Below are positions 8,961-22,897 of a stretch of DNA of 64,000 nucleotides, in pieces (position 1 is the first letter of the stretch; every line of letters starts with the position of its first letter). The stretch is from Halobaculum saliterrae (GTDB lineage: Archaea > Halobacteriota > Halobacteria > Halobacteriales > Haloferacaceae): the NCBI RefSeq assembly GCF_009831625.1, contig NZ_WUUS01000006.1, forward strand, positions 186,001 through 250,000, written 5' to 3'. The position numbers and the translations under genes were made by a program. The notes beneath the pieces were generated by a model that saw only the letters and a list, made by a program, of their open reading frames with translations, did not search any database and had not been told where the DNA came from.

Positions 8961-9065
8961 ACAGTATCCACTATACGGACATAATCACAACATCAGGAAA
9001 CCGCGCTCTCGAAGAGCCGAAGCCTACTCTGTGAATTCAGAAAGACAGCAGGCCCGGAATATCGG

Positions 9066-9668
9066 TCACAGTTCTTTGACTACCTTAGCTGGATTTCCAG
9101 CGACGACAGTATTAGGAGGAACATCGTCAGTGACGATCGAACCGGCACCAACGACTGCGTTGTCGCCGATAGTCACGCCTTTCAGAATGATACTTCGCGT
9201 ACCCAGCCATGCGCTTTCACCGACCGTGACTGGACGCTTCTCGACGGCACCGTCGCCCACAGCGTGGACATCAGAATCACGGATCACGACACCAGGAGCA
9301 AGCGTGGCATCCTCTTTGAGGACGACCTCGGTCGCTGCGTAGATCTCACAGCCCCGATTGATGAATACGTCGTCGTGGACAGTGAGGCGGCCGGCCACTT
9401 TGAAAAACGTCGGCTGTCCCAGATTCCCGACGAGCTCTACCCTGTTGCCGAATACGACTTGTTCAGCCCCACTGTCAAGAAGCCGAACGTCGCCCCGGAT
9501 CTTAAGCCCCTCTCGGGAACCCGTGATTGTCTTCTTGTGTTTCCACAGAAAACGAGCCCCTGCAAGTCTCCATAGTACGTACCGTCCGCTCATCCGAACA
9601 GTCGCGCTAAAACCGTTTTCACGGTAGTACGTACGTGCCTTTGAGATGAGCGGATGCGACAACAACAT
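9066..9668 (-). CDS. Hexapeptide-repeat acyltransferase (WbbJ/LbH type)
   Basis: 200 aa. After an N-terminal amphipathic region come imperfect hexapeptide repeats (VVFGNRVELVG, LTVHDDVFINRG, ATLAPGVVIRDSD) and the classical C-terminal part with SAWLGTRSIILKGVTIGDNA, VVGAGSIVTDDVPPNTV and VAGNPAKVV, as in maltose/galactoside O-acetyltransferases and capsule acetyltransferases. The catalytic His usually found before the WxG segment corresponds to DSDVHAVG here. Likely role: O-acetylation of a surface-glycan sugar in the cytoplasm. First gene of the low-GC cassette; divergent from the flippase (97 bp between starts). The acceptor sugar is unknown. Confidence 0.8.
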   Translation of the reverse strand: MLLSHPLISKARTYYRENGFSATVRMSGRYVLWRLAGARFLWKHKKTITGSREGLKIRGDVRLLDSGAEQVVFGNRVELVGNLGQPTFFKVAGRLTVHDDVFINRGCEIYAATEVVLKEDATLAPGVVIRDSDVHAVGDGAVEKRPVTVGESAWLGTRSIILKGVTIGDNAVVGAGSIVTDDVPPNTVVAGNPAKVVKEL

Positions 9669-9734
9669 CTGTGTTCGCTCTATCGGCTCACTTGTTAAGT
9701 TCCTCGGGTGGTGTCAACACCTATTCTTCGGGGA

Positions 9735-9741
9735 GTATATA
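9735..9741 (+). promoter_or_regulatory. TATA box of the flippase gene
   Basis: GAGTATATACC lies about 28-31 bp upstream of ATG 9766, the standard spacing for a leaderless haloarchaeal transcript. This supports 9766 rather than the upstream in-frame ATG at 9646 as the start. Confidence 0.6.
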
Positions 9742-9765
9742 CCGCGAACACTAATACATCGCCAC

Positions 9766-11289
9766 ATGAGCGACGAAGGCCTTGGATCGATCTCCCGGAT
9801 CGTCTCCGGGTCTGCCATCATTTTCGCCGGCTCGATACTTCACAAGCTCATCGCTTTCGGCGGGAGCATCTTCATAGCTAGGGCACTTGGGGATACCGGC
9901 TATGGGATTGTGGTTGTCGCATTATCGATGCTGTTCGTCTTCGGGGAATTGCTGAATCTCGGAATGGGACAGGGTGTTTCACGAAATTATCCCCGTGCAG
10001 AAACGGATCAAGAACGACGAGGGATTCTCCTGTCGGCGCTTCAGTTGTCCATTATTCTGTCAGTTTTTGGTGGGGTCGGCGTGTTTCTCGCCGCCGAACC
10101 GCTGGCAGTTCGTGTGTTTAACGATCCATCGTTGATTCCTGTACTCGAGGTGGTTGCTGTGGTCGTCCCTCTCTACAGTCTTCGAAAAGTCTCGAATGGG
10201 GGGCTTCAGGCGGTGAAAAAACCGGCGGCAAAAGCCCTCATATCCAGTATATTCCAACCAATTGTCAGAATCGTGTTCATCGTCGTATTGGTAACTGCTG
10301 GCTTTGAGGCCGTAGGTGTCGCAAGTGCATACGTTGTCGCAACGGGGACTGCGGCCTTTCTCGCTCTCTATGTCGTCCACCGTGAGACAGATCTGTTCGC
10401 GATCGGCACTCCGGCGGCCCGTTCGTACCGTTCACTGTTGGCGTTCTCACTGCCGCTAGTTGGGTCTGCAGTCATTATGCGATTAATGAACAACGTCGAC
10501 ACGCTTCTTATCGGTACACTGCAAGCTTCGGCCGATGTCGGGCAGTATAATGTTGCGTTTGTGCTCGGACAGACAACACTTCTGTTTTACCAGACACTCG
10601 GGTTCATGTACGTCCCAGAACTATCTGAGTTGCACAAGGAGGGAGCAATAGACCAAGCGTCGATGATCTACCAAGCAGTTACAAAGTGGGTCGTTCTGGC
10701 TTCTGTGCCGTTTATCCTGACTGCTGTGGTGTTCCCGGAGACGGTCATTTCCCTCTTGTATTCAGAGATATATCTTCAAGCAACACTCCCGTTTCTGATT
10801 CTTATTGGCGGATTCTTGACCCACATCCTTGTTGGGCCGAACATCAACACGCTCACCAGTTTCGGGGATACTCGAGAGATCTTCATCTTCGATGCCGGAA
10901 CGGTCGGACTGAACATCGTCCTGAACCTCGTTCTGATTCCTCGATTTGGTATTGCCGGTGCTGCAACCGCGACTAGCGCATCGTACGTCGTTCGAAATGG
11001 TGTGATGACATGGTTCCTCCATCGGACATACGGCATCATGCCCTTCTCACGGCAGATGCTCTTGCCGCTCATCCCGACAGTACTGGTAGCCGGACTGTTG
11101 TGGTTCGTTGTTGAAGACAACTCAGTGCTACTGGTCATTGTCTCCGCGTTCGCTCTTGTTGCAACGACCACGCTCGGGTATCTCAGTAGCGGCATTGAGA
11201 AATCGGACATGATGCTCGCCGAGACAATCGAATCGCAAACAGGTATTGACCTCCACTACATCAGGCAGCTACACGATCGAATACGGTGA
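9766..11289 (+). CDS. Oligosaccharide flippase (Wzx/AglR-like, MATE_Wzx)
   Basis: 507 aa, a polytopic membrane protein with roughly 12-14 hydrophobic segments. It starts MSDEGLGSISRIVSGSAIIF, an amphipathic N-terminus leading into the first helix as in polysaccharide-transport proteins. Family features are the early FIARALGDTGYGIVVVALS and the mid-protein RLMNNVDTLLIGTL segment (Wzx helix 7 with Asn/Asp). It is predicted to move a dolichol- or polyprenol-linked glycan across the membrane. It is the only forward-strand transport gene of the cassette and has its own TATA box. Codon use is visibly less GC-rich than in the flanks, supporting shared recent history with its neighbours. Confidence 0.9.
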   Translation: MSDEGLGSISRIVSGSAIIFAGSILHKLIAFGGSIFIARALGDTGYGIVVVALSMLFVFGELLNLGMGQGVSRNYPRAETDQERRGILLSALQLSIILSVFGGVGVFLAAEPLAVRVFNDPSLIPVLEVVAVVVPLYSLRKVSNGGLQAVKKPAAKALISSIFQPIVRIVFIVVLVTAGFEAVGVASAYVVATGTAAFLALYVVHRETDLFAIGTPAARSYRSLLAFSLPLVGSAVIMRLMNNVDTLLIGTLQASADVGQYNVAFVLGQTTLLFYQTLGFMYVPELSELHKEGAIDQASMIYQAVTKWVVLASVPFILTAVVFPETVISLLYSEIYLQATLPFLILIGGFLTHILVGPNINTLTSFGDTREIFIFDAGTVGLNIVLNLVLIPRFGIAGAATATSASYVVRNGVMTWFLHRTYGIMPFSRQMLLPLIPTVLVAGLLWFVVEDNSVLLVIVSAFALVATTTLGYLSSGIEKSDMMLAETIESQTGIDLHYIRQLHDRIR

Positions 11290-11326
11290 ACTGACCCGAG
11301 TCGATCTCCAGAACATCTCTGTGAGG

Positions 11327-12229
11327 TTACTCCATATATCCGAGTTCGCGAAGGCGCTCTTCTGCAGTGTCCATTGTGACTGTCTGATCTACCCCCCGTT
11401 CCCGGTCGTCAGTATTCAGTTCCAACCACTTTCGAACATCGAAGACAGACTCCGGCAGGTCACCTTTGACGCCTTCTGTGGCTGCAACCATCGCTCGGTT
11501 ACTGTGGACACCGCTCTCTCCATCGTCGATCCAAGAAACCCGGATACCGTGGTCTGAGAGGACGACCAACTCATCGGTTCGTTCCCGGACCCAGCCAAGC
11601 ATACTGTCGACGCGCTCGTAATACTCTCGCAACTTGGCCTCCCGCGTTGCGAAGGCGTGACCTGTCACATCAAGAACGTGGGAATGAACGCCTGCGATCG
11701 GTGTGTCGATATCCGTAATACCCACAATCCAGCCGAATTCTTTCCCCGTATTTCCCATCGTCCGCTGCCGAAGTTCCCGTTCGGTCATCTCACCATGGCT
11801 GACCTTTGACGCCCAACTCCAGGCCTCTGAGAGGTGAGTCGCATCAGCAATACCTGGCCAACCGAATACTTGACCAGTTTCGAACGCATGAGGAAGGTGA
11901 GTTCGGTGGATCTCCTGCCTGTGGCCTCGTTCTCGAAATGGTTTCCCGAGTGTGTTTCTCACCTTGTGTGGGAAGAACTGAGTAGCTTGGCTTGCGACCC
12001 GAAGAGCAAGCGAATCCCAGTCTGCGGCGTCACCAGTCACCTCATGTTCAGAGGGGTGGACGCCGGTTGCGACAGATGTCCAAACTTCAGGTGTGTACGG
12101 GTGGTCGGCCGAATAGGTGAATGTCTCCAGTGGCCCGCTATTTTCGAGCAGAATGTTTTCGCAGTCCCACCGACGCGCGAGAGCATAATCAGCCGCGTCA
12201 AGAGCAATGACGGCCAGTGTGTCAGTCAT
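11327..12229 (-). CDS. Alkaline phosphatase superfamily protein (PDE/NPP-like)
   Basis: 300 aa. The beginning VIALDAADYALARRW has the metal-binding Asp of the alkaline phosphatase fold, followed by TPEVWTSVATGVHPSEHEV, where the Thr after VW is the position of the nucleophile in nucleotide pyrophosphatase/phosphodiesterases. Later come GVHSHVLDVTG and VVLSDHGIRVS, with metal-binding Asp and His residues. No signal peptide is visible, so it is probably cytoplasmic. Members often sit in archaeal glycan clusters, where they may cleave a phosphodiester or phosphate/sulfate ester. Converges with the flippase (37-bp gap) and diverges from the HprK-like gene. The substrate is unknown. Confidence 0.75.
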   Translation of the reverse strand: MTDTLAVIALDAADYALARRWDCENILLENSGPLETFTYSADHPYTPEVWTSVATGVHPSEHEVTGDAADWDSLALRVASQATQFFPHKVRNTLGKPFRERGHRQEIHRTHLPHAFETGQVFGWPGIADATHLSEAWSWASKVSHGEMTERELRQRTMGNTGKEFGWIVGITDIDTPIAGVHSHVLDVTGHAFATREAKLREYYERVDSMLGWVRERTDELVVLSDHGIRVSWIDDGESGVHSNRAMVAATEGVKGDLPESVFDVRKWLELNTDDRERGVDQTVTMDTAEERLRELGYME

Positions 12230-12357
12230 GTGGAGGAGTGTCCCCGCGGGATACTTACGCTATTCGGTGTCTACGGGGCCGGTGAGACTGGGACTCAGAA
12301 CAGACCAGAATGCATATGTCCAGTGGAAAACGTTACTTGATAACAGAACTCTCTCGT

Positions 12358-13452
12358 ATGAACGTCTTCGACATATACGGGTATCAGCTCGGCATTGACG
12401 GGAGTACAGATGCATTAGATAAGCTCTCAAACGCGTATGGGTCTTTTTCCTCAACAGGAACCGATGTCGATATAAATTTACAAATATCCCAACTCACGCA
12501 ATCGTTGAGACACGAGCACAAGCTTGGCGGGGCAAAGCGGTTCTATGGGCGGTCCGAGGATCGGTTTACCCTCCGTGATCACGCCAGTACAATCGCCGTT
12601 GATGAGGATTGGACTGAAGTTGCGTGTTCGTCCAAGGCTTCAACGTCAACGTTGACGACACTCCTCGAGGGGCAGCTCAGGCAACAACTTGCGCCGGAGG
12701 GAAAGGCGATGATTCACGGCTCAGGTGTCCGGTATGAGGGAGAGACGCTTCTCTTTCCCGCGTGGCGTCATACCGGGAAGACCAATACGATGCTGAGTTT
12801 CGCCGTCCGAGGCGGTGACTTCCTGTCTGATGACCGTCTGTTCGTGGACGAACGTGGGATGGCCCACAGCTATCCGATGCCGATTAATCTCCTTCAGTAT
12901 AACCTCCGTGCGTTCCCAGAGCTGCTTGCCCGGAGTAACTTCGAACGGTTCAAAGATAGGCTGAGTATGGCCCTCGCTAGTCAAACTGAGGGGATGCCGG
13001 AGCACAGCTTTGTGCGAGGTGTCCTCGATTACCTCAATAACCATGTTATCAAAGACTCATATAAGTACCACCCGTCAGATCTCTTCGAAGATATTGTGAC
13101 GATCCCGCAAGAGACCCCGATAGACAAGCTCGTTTTGTTGGAAACAACGGAGTCTGATATCGATCACTGCCGTATCGAACCAATCGAGGCGAAAACAATG
13201 GCCCGCATACTGGGTTCAATCACTGACTTCGAATGGAATACGACACTCCATGACACGTATAGCGCGTACGACATGCTGTTCCCAGAACGGGACGGGCTAA
13301 CGGACCAGCTCATGCAACTGCGTTCTCGTGAACGCGAAGTGTACGAAGCCGTGGCCGAAACCGCAGACGTGTATCGGCTTCAGGTTCCCGAAGAAGAAGA
13401 GTGGAGCAGAGAAACCCAACAGCGAGTCGTCGAAACGACGATCGGCGTTTAA
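12358..13452 (+). CDS. HprK-like/PEPCK-fold ATPase of the glycan cassette
   Basis: 364 aa from ATG 12358 (MNVFDIYGYQLGI); ATG 12310 would extend it by 16 residues. The middle holds GSGVRYEGETLLFPAWRHTG, then KTNTML, then DFLSDDRLFVDERG, the layout of HPr-kinase/PEPCK-like P-loop domains: Walker A, a Walker B-like SDD, and YPMPINLL. The P-loop is AWRHTGKT, so the first Gly of the canonical GxxxxGK(S/T) is Ala, a deviation worth checking. Proteins like this recur in haloarchaeal surface-polysaccharide clusters with unknown substrates; phosphorylation of a sugar or protein is inference. It ends 5 bp from the converging fusion gene. Confidence 0.65.
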   Translation: MNVFDIYGYQLGIDGSTDALDKLSNAYGSFSSTGTDVDINLQISQLTQSLRHEHKLGGAKRFYGRSEDRFTLRDHASTIAVDEDWTEVACSSKASTSTLTTLLEGQLRQQLAPEGKAMIHGSGVRYEGETLLFPAWRHTGKTNTMLSFAVRGGDFLSDDRLFVDERGMAHSYPMPINLLQYNLRAFPELLARSNFERFKDRLSMALASQTEGMPEHSFVRGVLDYLNNHVIKDSYKYHPSDLFEDIVTIPQETPIDKLVLLETTESDIDHCRIEPIEAKTMARILGSITDFEWNTTLHDTYSAYDMLFPERDGLTDQLMQLRSREREVYEAVAETADVYRLQVPEEEEWSRETQQRVVETTIGV

Positions 13453-13457
13453 GCCTC

Positions 13458-15302
13458 TCAATCGGGCGACACTGCCCCTGCTCTGTGGGAAACTGCCTGC
13501 ACAATCGCAGGCAACTCGCCTGCAATCTTTCGTCCCCAAACCGCAAACGTCTCAGGGATCGTGATAAGCGAAAGGCTCGTGGGATATGAATAATTCACAC
13601 TGATTCTGTGTTGCAAACCAGCTGGCAAGTGGCGAACGATAGTCACCGGGTCCATCCCAACCTGTTCGCCGTATCGTGTGAGTTCCTCAGTCGTGATTCG
13701 CGCGAACGGGGAGTCCTGTAGAAACAGTCGGTCTACGGCAGTGTCAATGTCGCCGAACGTGCGCACGCCGAGGGTCAGAAGAAAGTTCGTCGGATCAATA
13801 AACGGTGAGCCTGCTGTCGCCGCGTACTCCCAGTCGATTACACCAGTAATTCCCGTATCATCGACAAACACGTTCACCTGATTGAAGTCCCCGTGTACGA
13901 CCGTTTCGAAGCTCGATATCGGTTCCGGGGGCGCAGGAACCTCGATACCGACGGTGCTGTTAGAGAGGAATTCTTGTACCTCTGTTGGTGTCCGCTCGAT
14001 CTTGTGCTCACAATACGGTTGTTGGAGACGAGCGATCCAGTTGAGACCCGTCCGTAACACCCACTGGAATGACCCAGGGGACCGTTTGACTCTATTACGA
14101 AGTTGTGTTCCTTGGACCTGTTGTTCAGATCGGGTATTACCAAACTGTGTCTCTATCCGCGTTCCTGTTGGAAGAGTCCCAGTAATCTCGTCATTTGTTG
14201 AGCGAACGTACTCCAAGGTCTCCTGTTCGCGGTTGTTGAACTGCTCATACGTCGTGACGTTGGGAACCTTATATATCCGGTCAGCCCCGTCGGTAGAGCT
14301 ATCGAACAGCGTGGAACGGTATCGCCCTCGGAGAATCAGGCCACCCGACAAGTCTGTCGTTGTTGGTTCTCTCTGACGGGAGAAGACAAGTAGGTATCCG
14401 GGTAGGGCGTATTGAAGCAGTCCCAGACGGCGAAGTAGTGTCAATATCTGTTTGCCTGCCCGTTCTGTGATAGTCCGGGCAGTCAACTCCAGCGTCTGGA
14501 ACCGTCGCATCTCGTCTCGTTTTGTCGGGTCGAGCGCGTAGTCCGGACAACTTGGACTCGGGTACAGGCCATATGCTTTGGCGATCTGGAGGGTTTTAAT
14601 TGGCCCTCCGTTCCCATGGAGCGCTCGCTGAACAGACCGAAGACGACGGACGCTGTCAGCGACCCCGTCTGCCTGGATCACACCTTCTGTAAGGACGAAC
14701 GCCGTTCCTCGTTTTGAGAGGAGTGTATCGATCGTCGAGAACAAACTGAGGCGATCGACGTCATCCCGAAGGCTCGCTAAATCAGCCACAATCGTATCAA
14801 ATGTTCCAGGAGCGAGTGGGACCTCTGACAGCGATCCATGGATGGGAACGACGGAATCTGTCGGCAGATCAGTTCGGTTCGAAAGAATCCGAAGTCGGTC
14901 CACCGACTGTCCAAGAGCCACGACAGACTCACACTGCTCCGCTAGCAAGCCTGTCCGACGACCGGTTCCGGCAGTGATGTCCAAGCATCGTCCGGTGAGA
15001 AACGGACCAACGAACAAGCGCCAACAGTCGCGACCATATTCGAATAGTTCGGCGACCACTGAGTCAAATTCTTCACCCCCCAGGCTACTGGTCTCGACTG
15101 CGTTGCGAAGCGATGTGCGCTCTGTTTCTTCAGCGAGATCTCGGTACAAGGGACACGTCTCATCCTGCTGTCGAAACGATAAGATTCCACTCCGTCGCGT
15201 CGGGGCCCAACCGCACTCACAGCCCGTAGTTGCGTCTCGAATCAGCCCGCAACACTGTGGGCAAGTGAGCAATGGCACTTCCTGAGAGGAATATCGTGTC
15301 AT
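13458..15302 (-). CDS. Zinc ribbon-SAM methyltransferase-APH-like kinase fusion
   Basis: 614 aa with three parts. Residues 14-31 have CPQC and CEC of a treble-clef or zinc-ribbon motif. Residues about 80-300 form a class I methyltransferase (LDITAGTGRRTGLL at 107-120 as SAM motif I; IVADLASL as motif II-IV). Residues about 320-600 are an aminoglycoside-phosphotransferase/choline-kinase-like domain: IYKVPN (beta-3 Lys), a following Glu-rich helix, HGDFNQVNVF (catalytic loop, HGDxxxxN) and VIDWEYA (metal-binding Asp). The architecture parallels WbdD, the methyltransferase-kinase that caps E. coli O-polysaccharide; that parallel is by domain order, not proven homology. Its place in a glycan cassette suggests phosphorylation and methylation of a sugar chain. 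It lies 3 bp upstream of no gene on its strand; the GT2 ends at 15306. Confidence 0.75.
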   Translation of the reverse strand: MTRYSSQEVPLLTCPQCCGLIRDATTGCECGWAPTRRSGILSFRQQDETCPLYRDLAEETERTSLRNAVETSSLGGEEFDSVVAELFEYGRDCWRLFVGPFLTGRCLDITAGTGRRTGLLAEQCESVVALGQSVDRLRILSNRTDLPTDSVVPIHGSLSEVPLAPGTFDTIVADLASLRDDVDRLSLFSTIDTLLSKRGTAFVLTEGVIQADGVADSVRRLRSVQRALHGNGGPIKTLQIAKAYGLYPSPSCPDYALDPTKRDEMRRFQTLELTARTITERAGKQILTLLRRLGLLQYALPGYLLVFSRQREPTTTDLSGGLILRGRYRSTLFDSSTDGADRIYKVPNVTTYEQFNNREQETLEYVRSTNDEITGTLPTGTRIETQFGNTRSEQQVQGTQLRNRVKRSPGSFQWVLRTGLNWIARLQQPYCEHKIERTPTEVQEFLSNSTVGIEVPAPPEPISSFETVVHGDFNQVNVFVDDTGITGVIDWEYAATAGSPFIDPTNFLLTLGVRTFGDIDTAVDRLFLQDSPFARITTEELTRYGEQVGMDPVTIVRHLPAGLQHRISVNYSYPTSLSLITIPETFAVWGRKIAGELPAIVQAVSHRAGAVSPD

Positions 15303-15305
15303 TAA

Positions 15306-15863
15306 TTAAAAATTGAGAACGCCTTTGAGAAGACTTGGGGCATACTGCGGATATCTGACACAGAGATATGCAGTTGCCTGTAGTGTTTGAAGTGTTCCCT
15401 GCCCAACCGACTCGTGCTCTTCGTGATGAATACTGTCTCTGGGAAGCCCGCGGAGTTCTAGGCCCTTATTGAGTGCGTGAAGACAGAACTCGGTGTCCTC
15501 CATGTGATTCAACCGTTCGTCAAACCCGCCAAGTGATTCGAAGACTTGCCGTGACAGGACGAAAAACCGAGTCAGCAACAGCCCAAAGTCGAAGTCCTCT
15601 AAGCCGATGACCAGGCCTTGGCGGGCCTCACGAACGTGTTGCCAGAAGAACGATTCTTCGAATGTGATATCATCATCACAGAAGACGAGAATCTTACCGT
15701 CGGTTTGCGCCGCCCCGAGATTCCGTGCTTCCGCCCGATTCCCTTCGGACACAACTGCTGTTTCAACGGTGTCTGGAACAGACTCGAGTGTAATTGGGTC
15801 CGGGTCAAGCGTCGGAATCACCACCGAAACCTCCTCTGGAGAGATCACGCGTTCATTCGACAT
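15306..15863 (-). CDS. Short glycosyltransferase family 2 protein
   Basis: 185 aa from ATG 15863 (MSNERVISPEEVSVVIPTLD); a TTG at 15875 is less likely. The GT-A fold is recognisable: VVIPTLDPDPITL, then GNRAEARNLGAAQTDG, then ILVFCDDDITFEE with the DxD metal-binding motif, and GGFDERLNHMEDTEFCLHA (the ED acid/base region). It is shorter than most GT2 enzymes (about 230-320) but contains the whole catalytic core. It probably adds one nucleotide-sugar residue on the cytoplasmic face. It overlaps the GT4 gene upstream by 11 bp, so translation is coupled. Donor and acceptor are unknown. Confidence 0.8.
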   Translation of the reverse strand: MSNERVISPEEVSVVIPTLDPDPITLESVPDTVETAVVSEGNRAEARNLGAAQTDGKILVFCDDDITFEESFFWQHVREARQGLVIGLEDFDFGLLLTRFFVLSRQVFESLGGFDERLNHMEDTEFCLHALNKGLELRGLPRDSIHHEEHESVGQGTLQTLQATAYLCVRYPQYAPSLLKGVLNF

Positions 15864-16977
15864 TGTCGTTGACAATTCGCTGGAGGTGCATCTCCAAGAT
15901 TTCTGCCTGTCGGTCCCAAGTGAATTTCTCAGACACCTCCCTGCTCACTCGGCCGAACCGCTCCCGGCGAGGCCCGTCACCAAGCAGGCGATCCAATGCC
16001 TCAGTAAGCCCATTGACGTCGCCTGGGGAGACGAGATACCCGTTCTTTCCCTCAGTAACCTGCTCTGCGATCGCGTTGATATCGGTGCTGACGATTGGCT
16101 TACCGGAAGCTAGCGCTTCGAGGTTAACGACCGGGAATCCTTCATGATACGATGGTAGACAGAACACATCGCACGCCGCGAAGTACTGGTGGATCGCTTC
16201 ATGTTCGACAGCACCGGTAAACCGGACACAATCCGCAATCCCGATGTCGTGTGCGCGCTGTTCGAGTTCAGCTCTTAATGGACCATCGCCAACGATATAC
16301 AAGACAGCCGGGCTCACAAGCTGCGCATATGCGTCGAGGAGATCGGGTACCCCTTTCCCATCCTGCAAACGACCAACGAACATCACGATGGGATCGTCCT
16401 CCGTCACTGCAGGCTTCACATCGGGGTTGAACTGGTCCCTGTCTACAGATGGGTAAACAATTCCATCGACGGAGACACCAAGCCAGTCCTCGGCACGTTG
16501 TTTTGTGTCCTTGCTAGTAGCGAGATATGAGTCAGGCTGAGCAAATCGGCCCATCAGCTTCCACCGGATCGACGAGTGCCTGATTCCCGGAATGTGAAAC
16601 ACGTTCGGCACAGAGAGCGTTCGGGAGAGAAGGAGATTATCCAGGTAGTAATGTGTTGAAACGATATCTTCTCTGTTGAGAGCATCACGTACATCACTCC
16701 GCAGTACGTTCCAAAACATCGACAGCGATTCAACTTCGGCCGACATGAGGGGCGTGTAACTACACACTCGCTCGTTCAATCGACTTTCTTTGGGGATCAA
16801 GTCGACTTGGACGATGTCAGCATCCATCCGCTCGACTTCCGGGAGGATATTCCCAGTCCCTGTGTACAGGGTGATATCGTGACGACCGGTGAGTTGTTTT
16901 GTCAGCTCCCGAACGACGGTCTCGGTACCGCCGCTGTTTGCGAACCCGACTCTCGGGGAGTAGATCCCGATGTTCAT
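15853..16977 (-). CDS. Glycosyltransferase family 4
   Basis: 374 aa, starting MNIGIYSPRVGFANSGGTET. The start is supported by a 4-bp ATGA overlap with the upstream gene's stop. GT-B fold: N-terminal Gly-rich loop SGGTETVVREL, and a C-terminal donor domain with FVGRLQDGKGVPDLLDAY, YIVGDGPLRAEL, and EGFPVVNLEALASGKPIV carrying the EX7E motif. A retaining transferase using a nucleotide sugar; substrate not predictable. Middle of the three-gene reverse operon GT4-GT4-GT2. Confidence 0.9.
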   Translation of the reverse strand: MNIGIYSPRVGFANSGGTETVVRELTKQLTGRHDITLYTGTGNILPEVERMDADIVQVDLIPKESRLNERVCSYTPLMSAEVESLSMFWNVLRSDVRDALNREDIVSTHYYLDNLLLSRTLSVPNVFHIPGIRHSSIRWKLMGRFAQPDSYLATSKDTKQRAEDWLGVSVDGIVYPSVDRDQFNPDVKPAVTEDDPIVMFVGRLQDGKGVPDLLDAYAQLVSPAVLYIVGDGPLRAELEQRAHDIGIADCVRFTGAVEHEAIHQYFAACDVFCLPSYHEGFPVVNLEALASGKPIVSTDINAIAEQVTEGKNGYLVSPGDVNGLTEALDRLLGDGPRRERFGRVSREVSEKFTWDRQAEILEMHLQRIVNDNVE

Positions 16978-18128
16978 ACTTCTTCCTCTGCAGGGTCGGA
17001 TCCCAGCTGGTGATTCCGATGCCACTCCGTGATCAAACTGTGCAAGCGAGTGTCGAACGTCGTCAAAGAGAACGGCTCCACCCGTGATTTTGAAATTGTA
17101 AGTGGTGCTCGTTTGTGTCTGTGTATCGCGTCTACGATGCCGTCAGCACTGCCATCATGAAGATAACCATTGACCCCCTCTTCGACGAACACGCCTTGAA
17201 ACCCCTCGTTACGTGTTAGTACGGCTTTTCCACTCGCGTTAGCCTCAATCGGTACAATACCGAAATCCTCGTTGCGACCGTTAAACACGACTGCAGTACA
17301 CGTTGCGAGCAATTCCAACTTCCGTTCTTCGGAGACAAACCCTTCATAATACATGTTTCTTGACCCTTCTATCTGATCGACTACTGATTGATCCACGTCA
17401 CCACGGCCACCGACAAATCGAATCTCTTCGTTCGACTGTTCAAAGGCTTTCACAATAGCCAAAACCCCCTTTTCATTGTCCAACCTTCCAAGATGCAGGT
17501 AGAACCCCTCATCCCCCTCATTACGGTACTTTTCTAGCGGAACCGGTGGATACAGAATGTGTGCTTCTCGATCGTAGTATTTGCGCAGTCGTCGAGCAAT
17601 AATCGGACTGTTGGCAAAGTAGTAGTCGACACGGGGATCTACCGTTACGTCTCGTGTTCGGAGGTGTCTGATGAGTGGCCGCGACAGCAATCCGAGTAAA
17701 GAATCTTTCCGGTCGTGGTACAGGTCATAGAACCACCGCGGAGGGGAGTGGCAGTAGTTGATGTGCAACACGTCATCAGGTGTGATCACAGCGCGAGTAG
17801 TCGCTCCCGATGTAATGAGTACGTCCGGATGGCCATACTCGCGCCAGTCGACATCCTCCCACAGAGAATACTCGAATACACGGTCGATCCGCGACTGGAA
17901 TCGCCGTATGCTAGGGAATGACAGATCTACAGTCACGTCATAAAACGAAACATCACCGTAAGGATTGGGGCCCTCCGGAGAGGGGACTCCGACGGTATAG
18001 ATCTGATCGACACCTAGTGTCTCTGCCATTTTGGTCACAAGGTATTCCGCCCCACCCCAAGCGTTGACGTGCCAGTGGGCAAGTGCCACGTCAAGTTCAT
18101 CATAGCCCACAGCCGGCCCGTCTTCCAT
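16974..18128 (-). CDS. Glycosyltransferase family 4 (second)
   Basis: 384 aa from ATG 18128 (MEDGPAVGYDELDVALAHWH); an upstream in-frame ATG at 18215 would add 29 hydrophobic and basic residues and cannot be excluded. The N-terminal domain has NAWGGAEYLVTKM, and HINYCHSPPRWFYDLY resembles ALG11/mannosyltransferase-like GT4 members. The donor domain has LHLGRLDNEKGVLAIVKAF, VGGRGDVD, and EDFGIVPIEANASGKAVL (the EX7E motif). First gene of the reverse operon and the last gene of the low-GC cassette. It probably builds the surface glycan together with the two transferases downstream. Confidence 0.88.
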   Translation of the reverse strand: MEDGPAVGYDELDVALAHWHVNAWGGAEYLVTKMAETLGVDQIYTVGVPSPEGPNPYGDVSFYDVTVDLSFPSIRRFQSRIDRVFEYSLWEDVDWREYGHPDVLITSGATTRAVITPDDVLHINYCHSPPRWFYDLYHDRKDSLLGLLSRPLIRHLRTRDVTVDPRVDYYFANSPIIARRLRKYYDREAHILYPPVPLEKYRNEGDEGFYLHLGRLDNEKGVLAIVKAFEQSNEEIRFVGGRGDVDQSVVDQIEGSRNMYYEGFVSEERKLELLATCTAVVFNGRNEDFGIVPIEANASGKAVLTRNEGFQGVFVEEGVNGYLHDGSADGIVDAIHRHKRAPLTISKSRVEPFSLTTFDTRLHSLITEWHRNHQLGSDPAEEEV

Positions 18129-18569
18129 ACGCGACACGTTTCGTAGGAGTGAGAAAAGTACCATGGTTAACCGCCCCGTTGTCATTGGTCCGACATGAAT
18201 CGCTTGCATAAGCACCTCCGGTGAAGTACCCTCAATGGTTCGGCGTAGAAACAGATCGTACTGGACGTTGTGCGGTTTGAGCTATACAACTAATTGCACT
18301 TCTACTATTAATTGGCGAGTTGCTTTATTCTTGTATACGACCGGGGTGAACCTGGCCGGTTGTGAGCGCTACTAAGTTTCAACCGTCCAATAACACAGCT
18401 GATTACGTCCGGTGTTGTCCATAAGTTCGGATCGTACTCCCGCTATATCGGTATCTCAATAGTATCTATTTCACTACTACTATACGTTATTCCGATATCC
18501 TCCACCAAGCCAGATCCGTGTCGTCCCGCAGCCACAACCGATTTGCATCGGCCGGCGATGGCACTATCC
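18129..18569. other. AT-rich right border of the low-GC cassette
   Basis: This noncoding stretch contains runs such as ACTATTAATTGG and ATACGTTATTCCG and is the most AT-rich part of the window; composition returns to high GC at about 18510. It must hold the promoter of the reverse glycosyltransferase operon (TATA candidate TGTATAGC on the minus strand near 18285). CGGTTG and CAACCG (about 18357 and 18381) form a weak stem. No attachment site, tRNA or transposase remnant is visible. Confidence 0.55.
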
Positions 18570-19781
18570 ATGCAGACCGTCATCCTCGCCGCCGGCTAGG
18601 GAACGCGGATGCGTCCGCTCACCGACCGCCGCCCGAAGCCGATGCTGCCCGTCGCCGGCAAGCCCCTCTCGGCCCACACCGCGGAGGCCGCGGTCGCGGC
18701 CGGCGCCTCCCGGCTCGTGATCGTCGTCGGCTATGAGGCCGACGCGGTCCGCTCGTACTTCGGCGACGAGTTCGACGGCGTCCCGTGGCGTTCGCCGAAC
18801 AGTCCGAGCAGCGCGGCACCGCCGACGCCGTCCGCGCGGGGGCGGCCCGGCTCGACGACGGCCCGTTCGCCGTGCTCAACGGCGACGCGCTGTACGATAC
18901 CGAGTCGCTGGCGACGCTGTACGAGTCGGCGCCCGCCGTCGGCTCCTACCGGGTCAACAATCCGAGCGCCTACGGCGTGCTGCACGCCGAGGGGACCGGC
19001 GACGACGTCCGTGTGACGGGCGTGACCGAGAAGCCCGCCGACCCCCCGTCGGATCTGATCAACGCCGGCGCGTACGTCTTCCCCGCCGAAGCCCAGGGAT
19101 GGCTCGACGTGGGCGAGAGCGAGCGCGGCGAGCTCGAACTCACGGACGTCCTCGAACGTGCCTGCGCGGAGATGGATGTGCGTGCGGTCCCGTTCGACCG
19201 CTGGCTCGACGTGGGCCGACCGTGGGAGCTGCTGGCGGCCAACGAGTGGAAGCTCGACGAGCTGGAGCGCCGGATCGACGGCGAGGTCCACGCGGACGCC
19301 GATCTCCGCGGCGACGTCGTCGTCGAGGCGGGCACCGAGGTCGACGCCGGCGTCGTGATCGAGGGACCCGCGCTGATCCGGTCGGGCGCCAGCGTCGGGC
19401 CGAACGCGTACGTGCGCGGGCGAACACTCTGAATCGAACGCGTCGGTGGGCCACAGCGTCGAGGTGAAAAACAGCGTACTCATGCAAGGGGCGACGGTCG
19501 GGCACCTCTCCTATGTCGGCGACAGCCTCCTCGGACGGGACGTGAACTTCGGCGCGGGGACCACGGTCGCGAACCTTCGGCACGACGACGCGGACGTGCG
19601 GGCGCTGGTGAAAGGGGAACTCGTGTCCACCGGTCGTCGCAAGTTCGGCGTCGTCTGCGGTGACGGGGTGAAGACGGGCATCCAGACGAGCCTCAATGCG
19701 GGCGTGAAGCTGGGGACGGACACACGGACCGGTCCGGCCGAGCGCGTGTTGCGCGATCGAACCGAGGGCGCCGATAACTGA
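18570..19781 (+). pseudogene. glmU: glmU-type nucleotidyltransferase pseudogene
   Basis: Read across three frames this is a complete bifunctional sugar-1-P nucleotidyltransferase/acetyltransferase of archaeal GlmU type: MQTVILAAG, then RPLTDRRPKPMLPVAGKPL, NGDALYDTE, and a hexapeptide-repeat C-terminus with VKNSVLMQGATVGHLSYVGD, FGAGTTVANLRHDD and GVKTGIQTSLNAGVKLG. There are three lesions. The signature GAGEGTRMRP has TAG for GAG at 18597-18599. A 1-nt deletion near 18785 shifts GVPVAFAEQ out of frame. A second frameshift near 19430 follows VRGRTL, before ESNASVGHSVEV. High GC, like the backbone and unlike the cassette. The intact but more divergent paralogue at 5962 may provide the activity. 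Three independent lesions make sequencing error unlikely. Confidence 0.85.
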
Positions 19782-20117: not shown

Positions 20118-20263
20118 TTTATAAGGTCCGATGTTGGTTATGTGCGTACCCCTACCCATGGTGACAGCACATAGTCCCCCCCGCCAAGTCCGCTTCGCGG
20201 GCGTTCTGGAGCAGGCTTGGGAGATCGGTGTTGTCGCCGCTTGCAGTGCGACTCAGACAAACC
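20118..20263 (+). promoter_or_regulatory. S-layer gene promoter and long 5' leader
   Basis: TTTATAAG at 20118-20125 is a near-consensus archaeal TATA box. With the usual spacing of about 26 bp, transcription should start near 20145, leaving a leader of about 115-120 nt before ATG 20264. Long leaders are known for the S-layer mRNAs of Halobacterium and Haloferax, whereas most haloarchaeal messages are leaderless. The leader contains CCGC-TTC-GCGG, a short perfect hairpin, at about 20190. Confidence 0.65.
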
Positions 20264-22897
20264 ATGACAGAAACTAACGACAAGATCCGCGCGCTGTTCC
20301 TGACAGCGCTGATGGTGTTCAGCGTCTTCGCTGGCACTGTCGCGTTCGCAGGGACGGCCGCTGCGGCGAACTCCGTCAGTGGAGCGACGTACTCCACTGA
20401 CCCGGTCAACGAGAGTTCGTCGTTCAACGGCGAAACGGTATCGGTCACGTTTGACGACGTGACAACGGACGATGGTGACACGGACACGTTCCACGTCAAC
20501 ATCCCGAACAGTATTGCTCAGGCTGGCTCGCTCAGCGTGAGCTCGGCCACTGTCAACGGTGACAACGGCGACTACTCCGCCAGCGTCTCCAGTAACCCGG
20601 TCGACGGGCAGGACGGTGACGGTGTCGCCGACACACTCCGCGTCACGACTGGCACCGACAGCGGTGTCCAGAACGACACGGTGACCGTTACGTTCACCTA
20701 CTCGTTCAGCACGCCTGCTGTCACCACTGCCACGGATTACAACTACCGCGGTACTGTCCTCGACAGTGGCGGCAGCGACATCGTGCTGGCGGACGCAGGT
20801 CCGGACCTGACGGTCTCCAACACTGGTCAGGACAGGTCGGCTGCCGACACAGTTGTCAACTCGAGCAACAACAACACGCTCGTCTGGGCAGGCCAGGTTG
20901 TCGGTACTGACGAGCACAGTGCCAACACCCAGGTTTCGCTCCGCCGTGTGACCGACTCCGGTTCCACGCTCGTCTCACAGAAGACCGTCAACAGTGACGG
21001 CTTCGTGACGTTCAGCACGGACGGTCGTCAGACTGGTGACTACTTCATCACTGGCGATAACAACCGGGTTTCCTTCGAGCTGACGCAGCAGGAGATCTCG
21101 GTCGACTTCAGCGCCGACTCGGTCGACAACTCCGGTCCGAGCGACTCGGTCGAGGTCGACTTCGAGGCTGACTCCAACCGTGCGCAGTACACCCACGTGC
21201 TCGAGGCCGAGTACCAGGGTGACGCCGTCGACGCGTCGACGCTGCAGGACATTCTCGGCGGTGCCGGTACCGTTGAGGACGTCGACAGCGACGACGCCGA
21301 CGAGCTGACCGTCGCCGGCTCCGCGGAGGACGCCTTCACGGCGAACTTCTCGGGCGTCGACGCGGGCAACTACACGATCACCTCGACCGTCGAGGACACC
21401 GGCGTCTCCGACTCCGCCAACATCACGGTGAACGATGTCGGCGACGGTGAGGCTGAATTCGAGCAGGGTAACATCGAGGTCGCGCAGGGTGACGTCGCGG
21501 AGATCAACGTCTCCCTCAGCGGCAACGCTGACACCGCGACGGTCGTCATCGGCAGTCTCGAGGACGACGGCTACCAGGCCAACGTCTCCGTGACTGACGA
21601 GGACGACGACGACGAGGTCACCATCGAGTTCAACACCTTCTCGGCTGGCAGCAGCAGTCTGGGTACTGTCGTCTCCGCCACGGGTGACGACACGGTTGAA
21701 TTCGACAGCAGCTCTGACCAGGAGACGATCTCCGCGATCCTCTCGACTGGTGAGTACACGATTGCGACGAGCACGGCGTCCGACGCGCAGACGACGCTTG
21801 ACTCGCCGCAGGACATCGGCACGATGTTCATCGCCGAGCGCTCCACCGACAGCATGCAGCTGTGGACGGCGCCCAGCGCTGCCGACCTCGACGCTGACGG
21901 CGAAGACGGCGTCGAGGAATCCGACATCGCGTCGCTCATCGAGGACGGTGCCGTCACGCAGGACGACACCATCACGGCCGGCGACTACGTCGTCCACCAG
22001 GTCACCGCGAGTGGCCTGGAGGGCGCTATCGCCGCAAACGGTAACCTCAGCGCCGCTCTCGGTAACGGCGTCAACGTGACCGTTGAGCAGACGAACCCGA
22101 TCCAGAACCGCGACCCGAAGGTCATCAACCTGACCGACTCGGGTGACGCCGTCACGCTCGTCGAGGGCGACGGTGCCTACTACATCGCGGTCAACACCGG
22201 CGACAGCGACCTCAACGTCTCCCGCAGCGGGAACGACGTTTCGCTGAGCGACGGTGACGAGTTCGAGGCTACCTTCACGGTCGACAGCGCACGCCTGCTC
22301 GGCTCCTCCGACGAGGAGGACCAGGAGTCGGTCAACGCGACCTTCGAGGTCGAGTCGGCCGACACCTCGCTCGACAGTGACCCCGTGAACGTCACGGCCG
22401 CTGACGAGCAGCAGATCACCGGCACGACCAACTACGCGCCGGGGACCGAGCTGACCATCCGCGTCCGCTCCACGGACAACACGCAGCCGCGGTTCTTCAA
22501 CACGGAGACCGTGACTGTTCAGGCTGATGGCAGCTTCAACGCCTCGTTCAACTTCGCGGACCAGTCCGCGGGTGACACGTTCACCGTGACCGTCCGCCAG
22601 GGCGGCACGTCCGTTGTGAGCGCCGACGGCAACGTTGTCGAGAGCGTGGCCACGCCGACGGCCACCGCCACGGAAGGCACGGAGACGGCAACCGCGACGG
22701 CAACGGCCACGGCGACCGCGACGGCCACGGCCACGGAGACGGCGACGGCCACCGCGACGGCCACCGAGGCTGACGAAGGCGGCATGACGACGACGGAGTC
22801 GACCGAGACTTCGACGTCGACGCCCGGCTTCGGCGCCGTGCTGGCAGTCATCGCCCTCATCGGCGCTGCGCTGCTGGCAGTCCGCCGCGACAACTAA
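20264..22897 (+). CDS. csg: S-layer glycoprotein with PGF-CTERM anchor
   Basis: 877 aa. ATG 20264 gives MTETNDKIRALFLTALMVFS, an n-region and hydrophobic core ending at AFAGTAAAA, a Sec signal peptide. The mature part is acidic, rich in Asp/Ser/Thr/Val with few Lys, and I count about sixteen N-X-S/T sequons (for example NES, NDT, NSS, NNT, NFS, NYT), consistent with heavy N-glycosylation. A Thr/Ala-rich linker (TATATATA) suited to O-glycosylation precedes STPGFGAVLAVIALIGAALL and RR, the PGF-CTERM tripartite signal processed by archaeosortase A. The artA gene is the next gene. Length and layout fit haloarchaeal S-layer glycoproteins (about 800-900 aa). It is the probable acceptor for glycans made by the genes at 1.5-18 kb. 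Confidence 0.95.
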   Translation: MTETNDKIRALFLTALMVFSVFAGTVAFAGTAAAANSVSGATYSTDPVNESSSFNGETVSVTFDDVTTDDGDTDTFHVNIPNSIAQAGSLSVSSATVNGDNGDYSASVSSNPVDGQDGDGVADTLRVTTGTDSGVQNDTVTVTFTYSFSTPAVTTATDYNYRGTVLDSGGSDIVLADAGPDLTVSNTGQDRSAADTVVNSSNNNTLVWAGQVVGTDEHSANTQVSLRRVTDSGSTLVSQKTVNSDGFVTFSTDGRQTGDYFITGDNNRVSFELTQQEISVDFSADSVDNSGPSDSVEVDFEADSNRAQYTHVLEAEYQGDAVDASTLQDILGGAGTVEDVDSDDADELTVAGSAEDAFTANFSGVDAGNYTITSTVEDTGVSDSANITVNDVGDGEAEFEQGNIEVAQGDVAEINVSLSGNADTATVVIGSLEDDGYQANVSVTDEDDDDEVTIEFNTFSAGSSSLGTVVSATGDDTVEFDSSSDQETISAILSTGEYTIATSTASDAQTTLDSPQDIGTMFIAERSTDSMQLWTAPSAADLDADGEDGVEESDIASLIEDGAVTQDDTITAGDYVVHQVTASGLEGAIAANGNLSAALGNGVNVTVEQTNPIQNRDPKVINLTDSGDAVTLVEGDGAYYIAVNTGDSDLNVSRSGNDVSLSDGDEFEATFTVDSARLLGSSDEEDQESVNATFEVESADTSLDSDPVNVTAADEQQITGTTNYAPGTELTIRVRSTDNTQPRFFNTETVTVQADGSFNASFNFADQSAGDTFTVTVRQGGTSVVSADGNVVESVATPTATATEGTETATATATATATATATATETATATATATEADEGGMTTTESTETSTSTPGFGAVLAVIALIGAALLAVRRDN

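What the first reader, a model, noticed from the sequence alone, without database searches (positions are those of the whole stretch)
13458..15302. Zinc ribbon-methyltransferase-kinase fusion: candidate archaeal WbdD-like glycan capping enzyme
One 614-aa protein combines a CxxC...CxC ribbon, a SAM-binding domain (LDITAGTGRR) and an APH-like kinase with HGDFNQVN and VIDWE motifs, and is encoded between glycosyltransferases and an HprK-like gene. E. coli WbdD also couples methyltransferase and kinase domains to cap and so set the length of O-polysaccharide. A phospho-methyl cap on archaeal surface glycan would be a new activity.
Basis: partly seen in the sequence, partly recalled or inferred. 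Interest (0 to 1): 0.75.

Follow-up and report, generated by a model that had tools for sequence, protein, structure and literature searches.

The report
Archaeal methyltransferase-kinase in glycan-export clusters
A salt-loving archaeon encodes one protein that joins a zinc ribbon, a methyltransferase domain and an antibiotic-kinase-like domain, and relatives across haloarchaea sit next to the membrane flippase that exports surface sugars, so it most likely phosphorylates (and in many members methylates) the sugar chain before export.

Summary
The three-domain protein is real (614 aa, MINUS strand, 13458-15302). It joins an RlmA(I)-like zinc-ribbon/methyltransferase half (residues 11-311) to an APH-fold kinase half (about 322-575). 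It belongs to an uncharacterised haloarchaeal family: 27 of 391 sampled Halobacteria genomes, none of the 10 same-genus genomes listed. In 31 members the kinase active site is invariant. The SAM site is complete in 16, partial in 8 (the window protein lacks the acidic strand-2 residue) and broken in 7, lost at least twice. New here: an oligosaccharide flippase lies in 22 of 30 loci and adjoins the fusion within 300 bp in 17, with 4-bp overlaps in 8. One genome carries the halves as separate overlapping genes, and a verrucomicrobial MAG has the fusion between glycosyltransferases. Best reading: a cytoplasmic kinase, often with a methyltransferase, that modifies lipid-linked glycan before flipping. 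It fails WbdD membership on kinase type, coiled coil and export system. The closest published precedent is the Klebsiella O7 terminator, a methyltransferase plus APH-like kinase making a methyl-phosphate cap (PMC11231755). Such a cap is possible in other members but doubtful for this one.

The parts
13458..15302 (-). zinc ribbon - methyltransferase - APH-fold kinase fusion, 614 aa
15168..15275 (-). four-cysteine zinc ribbon, residues 10-45 (C14, C17, C28, C30)
14370..15023 (-). class I SAM-methyltransferase domain, residues 94-311; motif I LDITAGTGRR at 14955-14984; Gly131 (usual Asp/Glu) at 14910-14912
13578..14339 (-). APH-fold kinase domain, residues 322-575; K345 at 14268-14270, HGDFNQVN at 13872-13895, VIDWE at 13827-13841
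9646..11289 (+). oligosaccharide flippase (Polysacc_synt); its family is the commonest neighbour of the fusion elsewhere
11327..12229 (-). type I phosphodiesterase / nucleotide pyrophosphatase family protein
12310..13452 (+). HprK-like ORF (sub-threshold matches only)
15306..15875 (-). GT2-like glycosyltransferase, short (189 aa)
15853..17025 (-). GT4-type glycosyltransferase
16974..18215 (-). GT4-type glycosyltransferase
9066..9668 (-). hexapeptide-repeat acyltransferase-like protein of the same cassette

Best explanation
A cytoplasmic glycan-modifying enzyme. The APH-fold kinase transfers the gamma-phosphate of ATP to a sugar hydroxyl of the lipid-linked glycan (or its last-added sugar), using Lys345 and Asp490 for nucleotide and metal and Asp472 as catalytic base. 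The ribbon-methyltransferase half, where its SAM site is intact, methylates the same glycan (the new phosphate, or a sugar hydroxyl or carboxylate). The modified lipid-linked glycan is then moved out by the co-encoded flippase. Shown here: architecture, invariant kinase residues, variable SAM site, flippase linkage, glycan-locus setting. Inferred: catalytic activity, residue roles (from APH-family knowledge), the glycan acceptor, the order before flipping, the methyl acceptor. In this particular protein the kinase is probably active and the methyltransferase uncertain.
For: Kinase Lys345, His470, Asp472, Asn477, Asp490 and Glu492 are invariant in 31 members. The kinase half matches small-molecule APH-fold kinases, among them choline kinase LicA and hexosamine kinase NahK (Z 13.1-14.7). 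A flippase lies in 22 of 30 loci, within 300 bp in 17, with 4-bp overlaps in 8; these genomes average about 6 such flippases each. The halves occur as separate overlapping genes in L062, the methyltransferase one with an N-terminal ribbon. A bacterial fusion lies between GT2 and GT4 genes. The window locus is a low-GC glycan cassette. Klebsiella O7 ORF6 is a proven methyltransferase plus APH-like kinase acting on a glycan (PMC11231755).
Against: No substrate has been shown, and APH-fold kinases act on many small molecules. In the window locus itself the flippase is not adjacent (2.2 kb away, other strand). Eight of 30 loci show no flippase within about 10 kb. No membrane anchor was seen that would bring the enzyme to a lipid-linked substrate. 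Gene linkage cannot separate a lipid-linked acceptor from a nucleotide-sugar or free-sugar acceptor.
Confidence: 0.5

Rival explanations
1. WbdD/O7-like terminator: the kinase phosphorylates the non-reducing end and the methyltransferase methylates that phosphate, stopping chain growth and licensing export.
For: Same two activities in the same order as WbdD and Klebsiella O7 ORF6; SAM site complete in 16 of 31 members; linkage to an export protein.
Against: SAM site broken in 7 of 31 and lost at least twice, partial in the window protein; no coiled coil; no Wzt_C export domain.
Confidence: 0.2
2. Precursor enzyme: the kinase makes a sugar phosphate for nucleotide-sugar synthesis (as NahK does) and the methyltransferase O-methylates a sugar; neither touches the assembled glycan.
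For: NahK is among the kinase fold matches (Z 13.3); the window cassette has nucleotidyltransferases and epimerases.
Against: Recurrent partner is the flippase (22 of 30 loci) and not nucleotidyltransferases (4 of 30).
Confidence: 0.2
3. Kinase-only enzyme in this organism: the methyltransferase half is a structural or acceptor-binding remnant, and the glycan is phosphorylated but not methylated.
For: Gly131 in place of the acidic SAM-ribose residue; relatives with fully broken SAM motifs keep an invariant kinase.
Against: Motif I glycines are intact in the window protein, and a few SAM-dependent enzymes lack the strand-2 acid (general knowledge, not tested).
Confidence: 0.3
4. The kinase acts on a non-sugar head group such as choline or ethanolamine (LicA-like) to decorate the glycan.
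For: LicA and ethanolamine/choline kinases are tied fold matches.
Against: No nucleotidyltransferase/transferase set of the Lic type was found recurring beside it; tied Z values carry no substrate information.
Confidence: 0.08

Closest known systems
Klebsiella pneumoniae O7 ORF6 N-terminal terminator (PMC11231755)
   Same: Methyltransferase followed by a kinase resembling amicoumacin kinase AmiN (a related amicoumacin kinase, 6sum, scores Z 13.3 against our kinase model), in a surface-glycan locus; proven phosphate and methyl-phosphate addition to rhamnose.
   Different: It has a CBM-like domain, a coiled coil and C-terminal GT2 modules and feeds an ABC exporter; ours has a zinc ribbon, none of those, and a flippase neighbour.
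WbdD of E. coli O9a (PMC3482155; 4azs, 4azt)
   Same: N-terminal methyltransferase (1-210) then kinase (211-459) acting on a surface glycan; aligned over both halves by Foldseek.
   Different: Eukaryotic-type kinase, C-terminal coiled coil 460-708, ABC export; no profile hit from our family; two-domain alignment has rmsd 16.5, so the arrangement does not superpose.
RlmA(I) 23S rRNA methyltransferase (1p91)
   Same: Zinc ribbon plus class I methyltransferase matched over residues 11-311, Z 15.2, rmsd 6.0, 207 residues.
   Different: rRNA substrate, no kinase; tied with many plain methyltransferases, so a fold match only.
APH, choline (LicA) and hexosamine (NahK) kinases
   Same: Fold (Z 13.1-14.7) and HGDxxxxN...D motifs; over the Pfam APH cut-off.
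   Different: Stand-alone enzymes with small-molecule substrates; no methyltransferase half.

Membership tests
WbdD-type O-antigen terminator | N-terminal methyltransferase followed by kinase in one chain | tested here: met
WbdD-type O-antigen terminator | Eukaryotic protein-kinase-like kinase (PMC3482155) | tested here: not met
   The kinase is PF01636 APH over its curated cut-off, 27 of 31 members match APH, and WbdD is absent from the complete E<=10 list of the kinase profile search. Both kinds belong to one wider fold superfamily.
WbdD-type O-antigen terminator | Long C-terminal coiled coil (WbdD residues 460-708) | tested here: not met
   The protein ends at 614, seven residues after the last helix (576-607) of the kinase domain
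WbdD-type O-antigen terminator | Export by an ABC transporter with Wzt carbohydrate-binding domain | tested here: not met
   No PF14524 match in the window's genome while two control genomes ring; flippase in the cluster instead
WbdD-type O-antigen terminator | Methyl-phosphate on the non-reducing end of the glycan | not testable with these tools
   needs biochemistry
Klebsiella O7 ORF6-type terminator | Methyltransferase plus APH-like kinase in a surface-glycan locus | tested here: met
   precedent read
Klebsiella O7 ORF6-type terminator | Coiled coil after the kinase, present in all its orthologues (PMC11231755) | tested here: not met
APH-family kinase (PF01636) | Pfam gathering score | tested here: met
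   34.5 bits against 23.2
APH-family kinase (PF01636) | Lysine, HGDxxxxN and Asp catalytic set | tested here: met
   K345, H470-G471-D472, N477, D490 invariant in 31
Class I SAM-methyltransferase | Glycine-rich motif I | tested here: met
   G112 and G114 present; Methyltransf_11 just over cut-off
Class I SAM-methyltransferase | Acidic residue at the end of strand 2 (ribose contact) | tested here: not met
   G131 in the window protein; D or E in most relatives. So the fold is a methyltransferase, the activity is not assured.
RlmA/Trm112-type zinc-ribbon methyltransferase | Four-cysteine ribbon before the methyltransferase | tested here: met
   C14, C17, C28, C30; 1p91 aligned from residue 11; CxC spacing of the second pair is unusual, close relatives have CxxC

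The most novel reading that the evidence does not exclude
Haloarchaea have a cap-then-flip checkpoint: a methyltransferase-kinase, often made from a gene overlapping the flippase gene, puts a phosphate or methyl-phosphate on the finished lipid-linked glycan, and the flippase accepts only capped glycan. This would be an archaeal glycan capping system tied to a flippase rather than to an ABC exporter.
Probability: 0.2. Interest if true: 0.75.

Novelty: new variant of a known kind. Interest (0 to 1): 0.5.

Why it matters
Methyltransferase-kinase terminators that decide when a surface glycan is finished are proven only for a few bacteria. A haloarchaeal family with the same parts, an invariant kinase site and overlap with a flippase gene points to glycan phosphorylation before export in archaea, where my searches of the held library found no report of such capping. 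It gives a concrete gene pair to test, and bears on how surface-glycan cassettes vary between close relatives.

Tried and rejected
Antibiotic resistance gene: rejected because of the fusion, the glycan-locus setting and the flippase linkage. Phage origin: no match in 50,697 phage records. Chance fusion or assembly error: rejected, 30 relatives share the architecture. HprK-like neighbour as an obligate partner: rejected, its relatives occur in 24 of 391 genomes but together with the fusion only in G000 and G043. WbdD homology by sequence: not detected in the PDB profile searches (one search showed only the best 60 of 90). WbdD does not appear among the 50 rows shown of either VIA-align list, which proves nothing by itself. 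A genome-contig scan with the whole-family alignment failed for lack of conserved stretches; a closer subset gave a few named relatives (Natronolimnohabitans, Natronobiforma, Natronosalvus) and the verrucomicrobial fusion. Plasmid search with the bacterial fusion found only part-length matches to methyltransferase or glycosyltransferase genes. Phylum-wide search found strong matches only within the window's own order. Literature searches for a phospho- or methyl-phospho-capped archaeal glycan found none in the held papers (titles and abstracts read, few papers opened).

Full report
OBSERVATION. The 614-aa frame is on the minus strand of 13458-15302. Pfam sees APH over its curated cut-off, Methyltransf_11 just over and Methyltransf_25 just under. 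AlphaFold on a 31-member alignment gave mean pLDDT 87.6 and pTM 0.88; the kinase half alone gave 92.2 and 0.91.

ANATOMY. Residues 11-311 match RlmA(I) 1p91, a zinc-ribbon methyltransferase, best (Z 15.2, rmsd 6.0, 207 residues), and many plain class I methyltransferases about equally well (Z 13-15). Residues from about 314 match APH(3')-Ia (Z 14.7, 212 residues), LicA (14.4), an amicoumacin kinase (13.3) and NahK (13.3); rows within 1 Z are tied and the spread is small, so no substrate can be read from this. In the listed Foldseek rows, WbdD (4azt) is the only protein aligned over both halves (528 columns, E 2.3e-07), but with rmsd 16.5 and TM 0.22, so the domain order agrees and the rigid arrangement does not.

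FAMILY. A search of 391 Halobacteria genomes found long relatives in 27 genomes including its own, 24-37% identical over the aligned part, and none in the ten same-genus genomes listed. Phylum-wide, matches at E<=1e-15 stayed within the same order. A tree of the kinase half has long branches and the window protein's place is unsure, next to L041 at 85/77. The patchy distribution and the low GC of the 9-18.3 kb island (0.535 against 0.72 to its right) fit a horizontally moved, serotype-like cassette (inference).

WHICH HALF MATTERS. Lys345, His470-Gly471-Asp472, Asn477, Asp490 and Glu492 are invariant in 31 members. Scoring Gly112, Gly114 and an acidic residue at 131, the SAM site is complete in 16, has two of three in 8 (the window protein among them: Gly131) and one or none in 7. 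On the kinase tree the broken state needs three changes, of which well-supported branches force two. So phosphorylation looks like the constant activity and methylation the optional one. This speaks against a strict phosphate-then-methyl cap as the defining chemistry of the whole family.

NEIGHBOURS. A flippase of the Polysacc_synt type lies in 22 of 30 loci. It is immediately upstream on the same strand within 300 bp in 15 and convergent within 12 bp in 2; two more lie within 640 bp. In eight loci (L033, L034, L036, L038, L039, L040, L049, L052) the two genes overlap by 4 bp; four of these (L033, L034, L038, L039) rest on starts that I chose from the alignment. These genomes hold about 6 such flippases each, so adjacency is far above chance. 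A rough binomial that assumes 18 genes per locus and independent loci gave 8e-16 for 19 of 22; it overstates the case because the loci are related. Right-handed beta-helix proteins (16 loci) and a polytopic membrane protein (11 loci) also recur; I call the latter DUF6541-like because a 598-aa gene so annotated lies in the same order in Halomontanus rarus, not because of a profile match (one search found none). The public annotation there names the relative 'phosphotransferase', directly after 'flippase'. In the window the flippase is 2.2 kb away on the other strand, with a phosphodiesterase and an HprK-like ORF between.

SPLIT AND BACTERIAL FORMS. In L062 a ribbon-methyltransferase gene and an APH gene overlap by 4 bp, and G019 and G022 show matches to both halves close together. 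A Verrucomicrobiia MAG contig (L071) encodes ribbon, methyltransferase and APH in one 674-aa frame overlapping a GT2 gene before it and a GT4 gene after it. Its kinase motif reads HGDxxxxH, so the usual Asn is His, and the binning of the MAG was not checked. The architecture is therefore probably not confined to archaea.

MECHANISM AND COMPARISON. The best-supported reading is a cytoplasmic kinase, often with a methyltransferase, that modifies the lipid-linked glycan before the flippase moves it. Activity, acceptor and order are inferred. The closest proven precedent is Klebsiella O7 ORF6, whose APH-like kinase and methyltransferase place methyl-phosphate on the terminal rhamnose (PMC11231755). 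WbdD (PMC3482155) works alike but has another kinase type, a coiled-coil tail and an ABC exporter. The window's genome has no Wzt_C match. It has an STT3 match on another contig, a weak STT3-like match about 20 kb upstream of the window and a second flippase about 10 kb upstream, so the glycan could be N-linked or another surface glycan; this is open.

VERDICT. New variant of a known kind, interest 0.5.

Noticed in passing
window 18609-19781 (+): A nucleotidyltransferase-like gene appears split over three frames (18609-19016, 18785-19432, 19446-19781): a decayed gene or sequencing errors at the edge of the low-GC island.
   Followed up: no
window 9000-18300: Low-GC island (0.535) beside high-GC sequence (0.72 to the right) and beside a large secreted protein with DUF7827 and PGF-CTERM at 20228-22897, probably an S-layer glycoprotein.
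   Followed up: partly
window 12310-13452 (+): HprK-like ORF with only sub-threshold family matches; relatives in 24 of 391 haloarchaeal genomes, the closest (G043) between two copies of the methyltransferase-kinase.
   Followed up: partly
L071 7986-10010 (+): Verrucomicrobiia MAG ribbon-methyltransferase-APH fusion overlapping glycosyltransferase genes on both sides; catalytic-loop Asn replaced by His.
   Followed up: partly
L060 9803-10291 (-): A 162-aa remnant of the fusion beside a flippase, in much the same gene order as the intact L035 locus: apparent decay.
   Followed up: no
L057 3016-4755 and 15676-17565 (-): Two diverged copies of the fusion in one glycan locus, both with broken SAM motifs; the same genome (G043) has a third copy elsewhere (L034) with an intact motif.
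   Followed up: partly
L031, L032, L033, L034 and others: Right-handed parallel beta-helix proteins recur near the fusion in 16 of 30 loci; possible polysaccharide epimerases or lyases.
   Followed up: no
L081 1291-3093 (+): Dehalococcoidia MAG protein with an APH domain at its C-terminus and an N-terminal half without a recognised family, perhaps a decayed methyltransferase.
   Followed up: no
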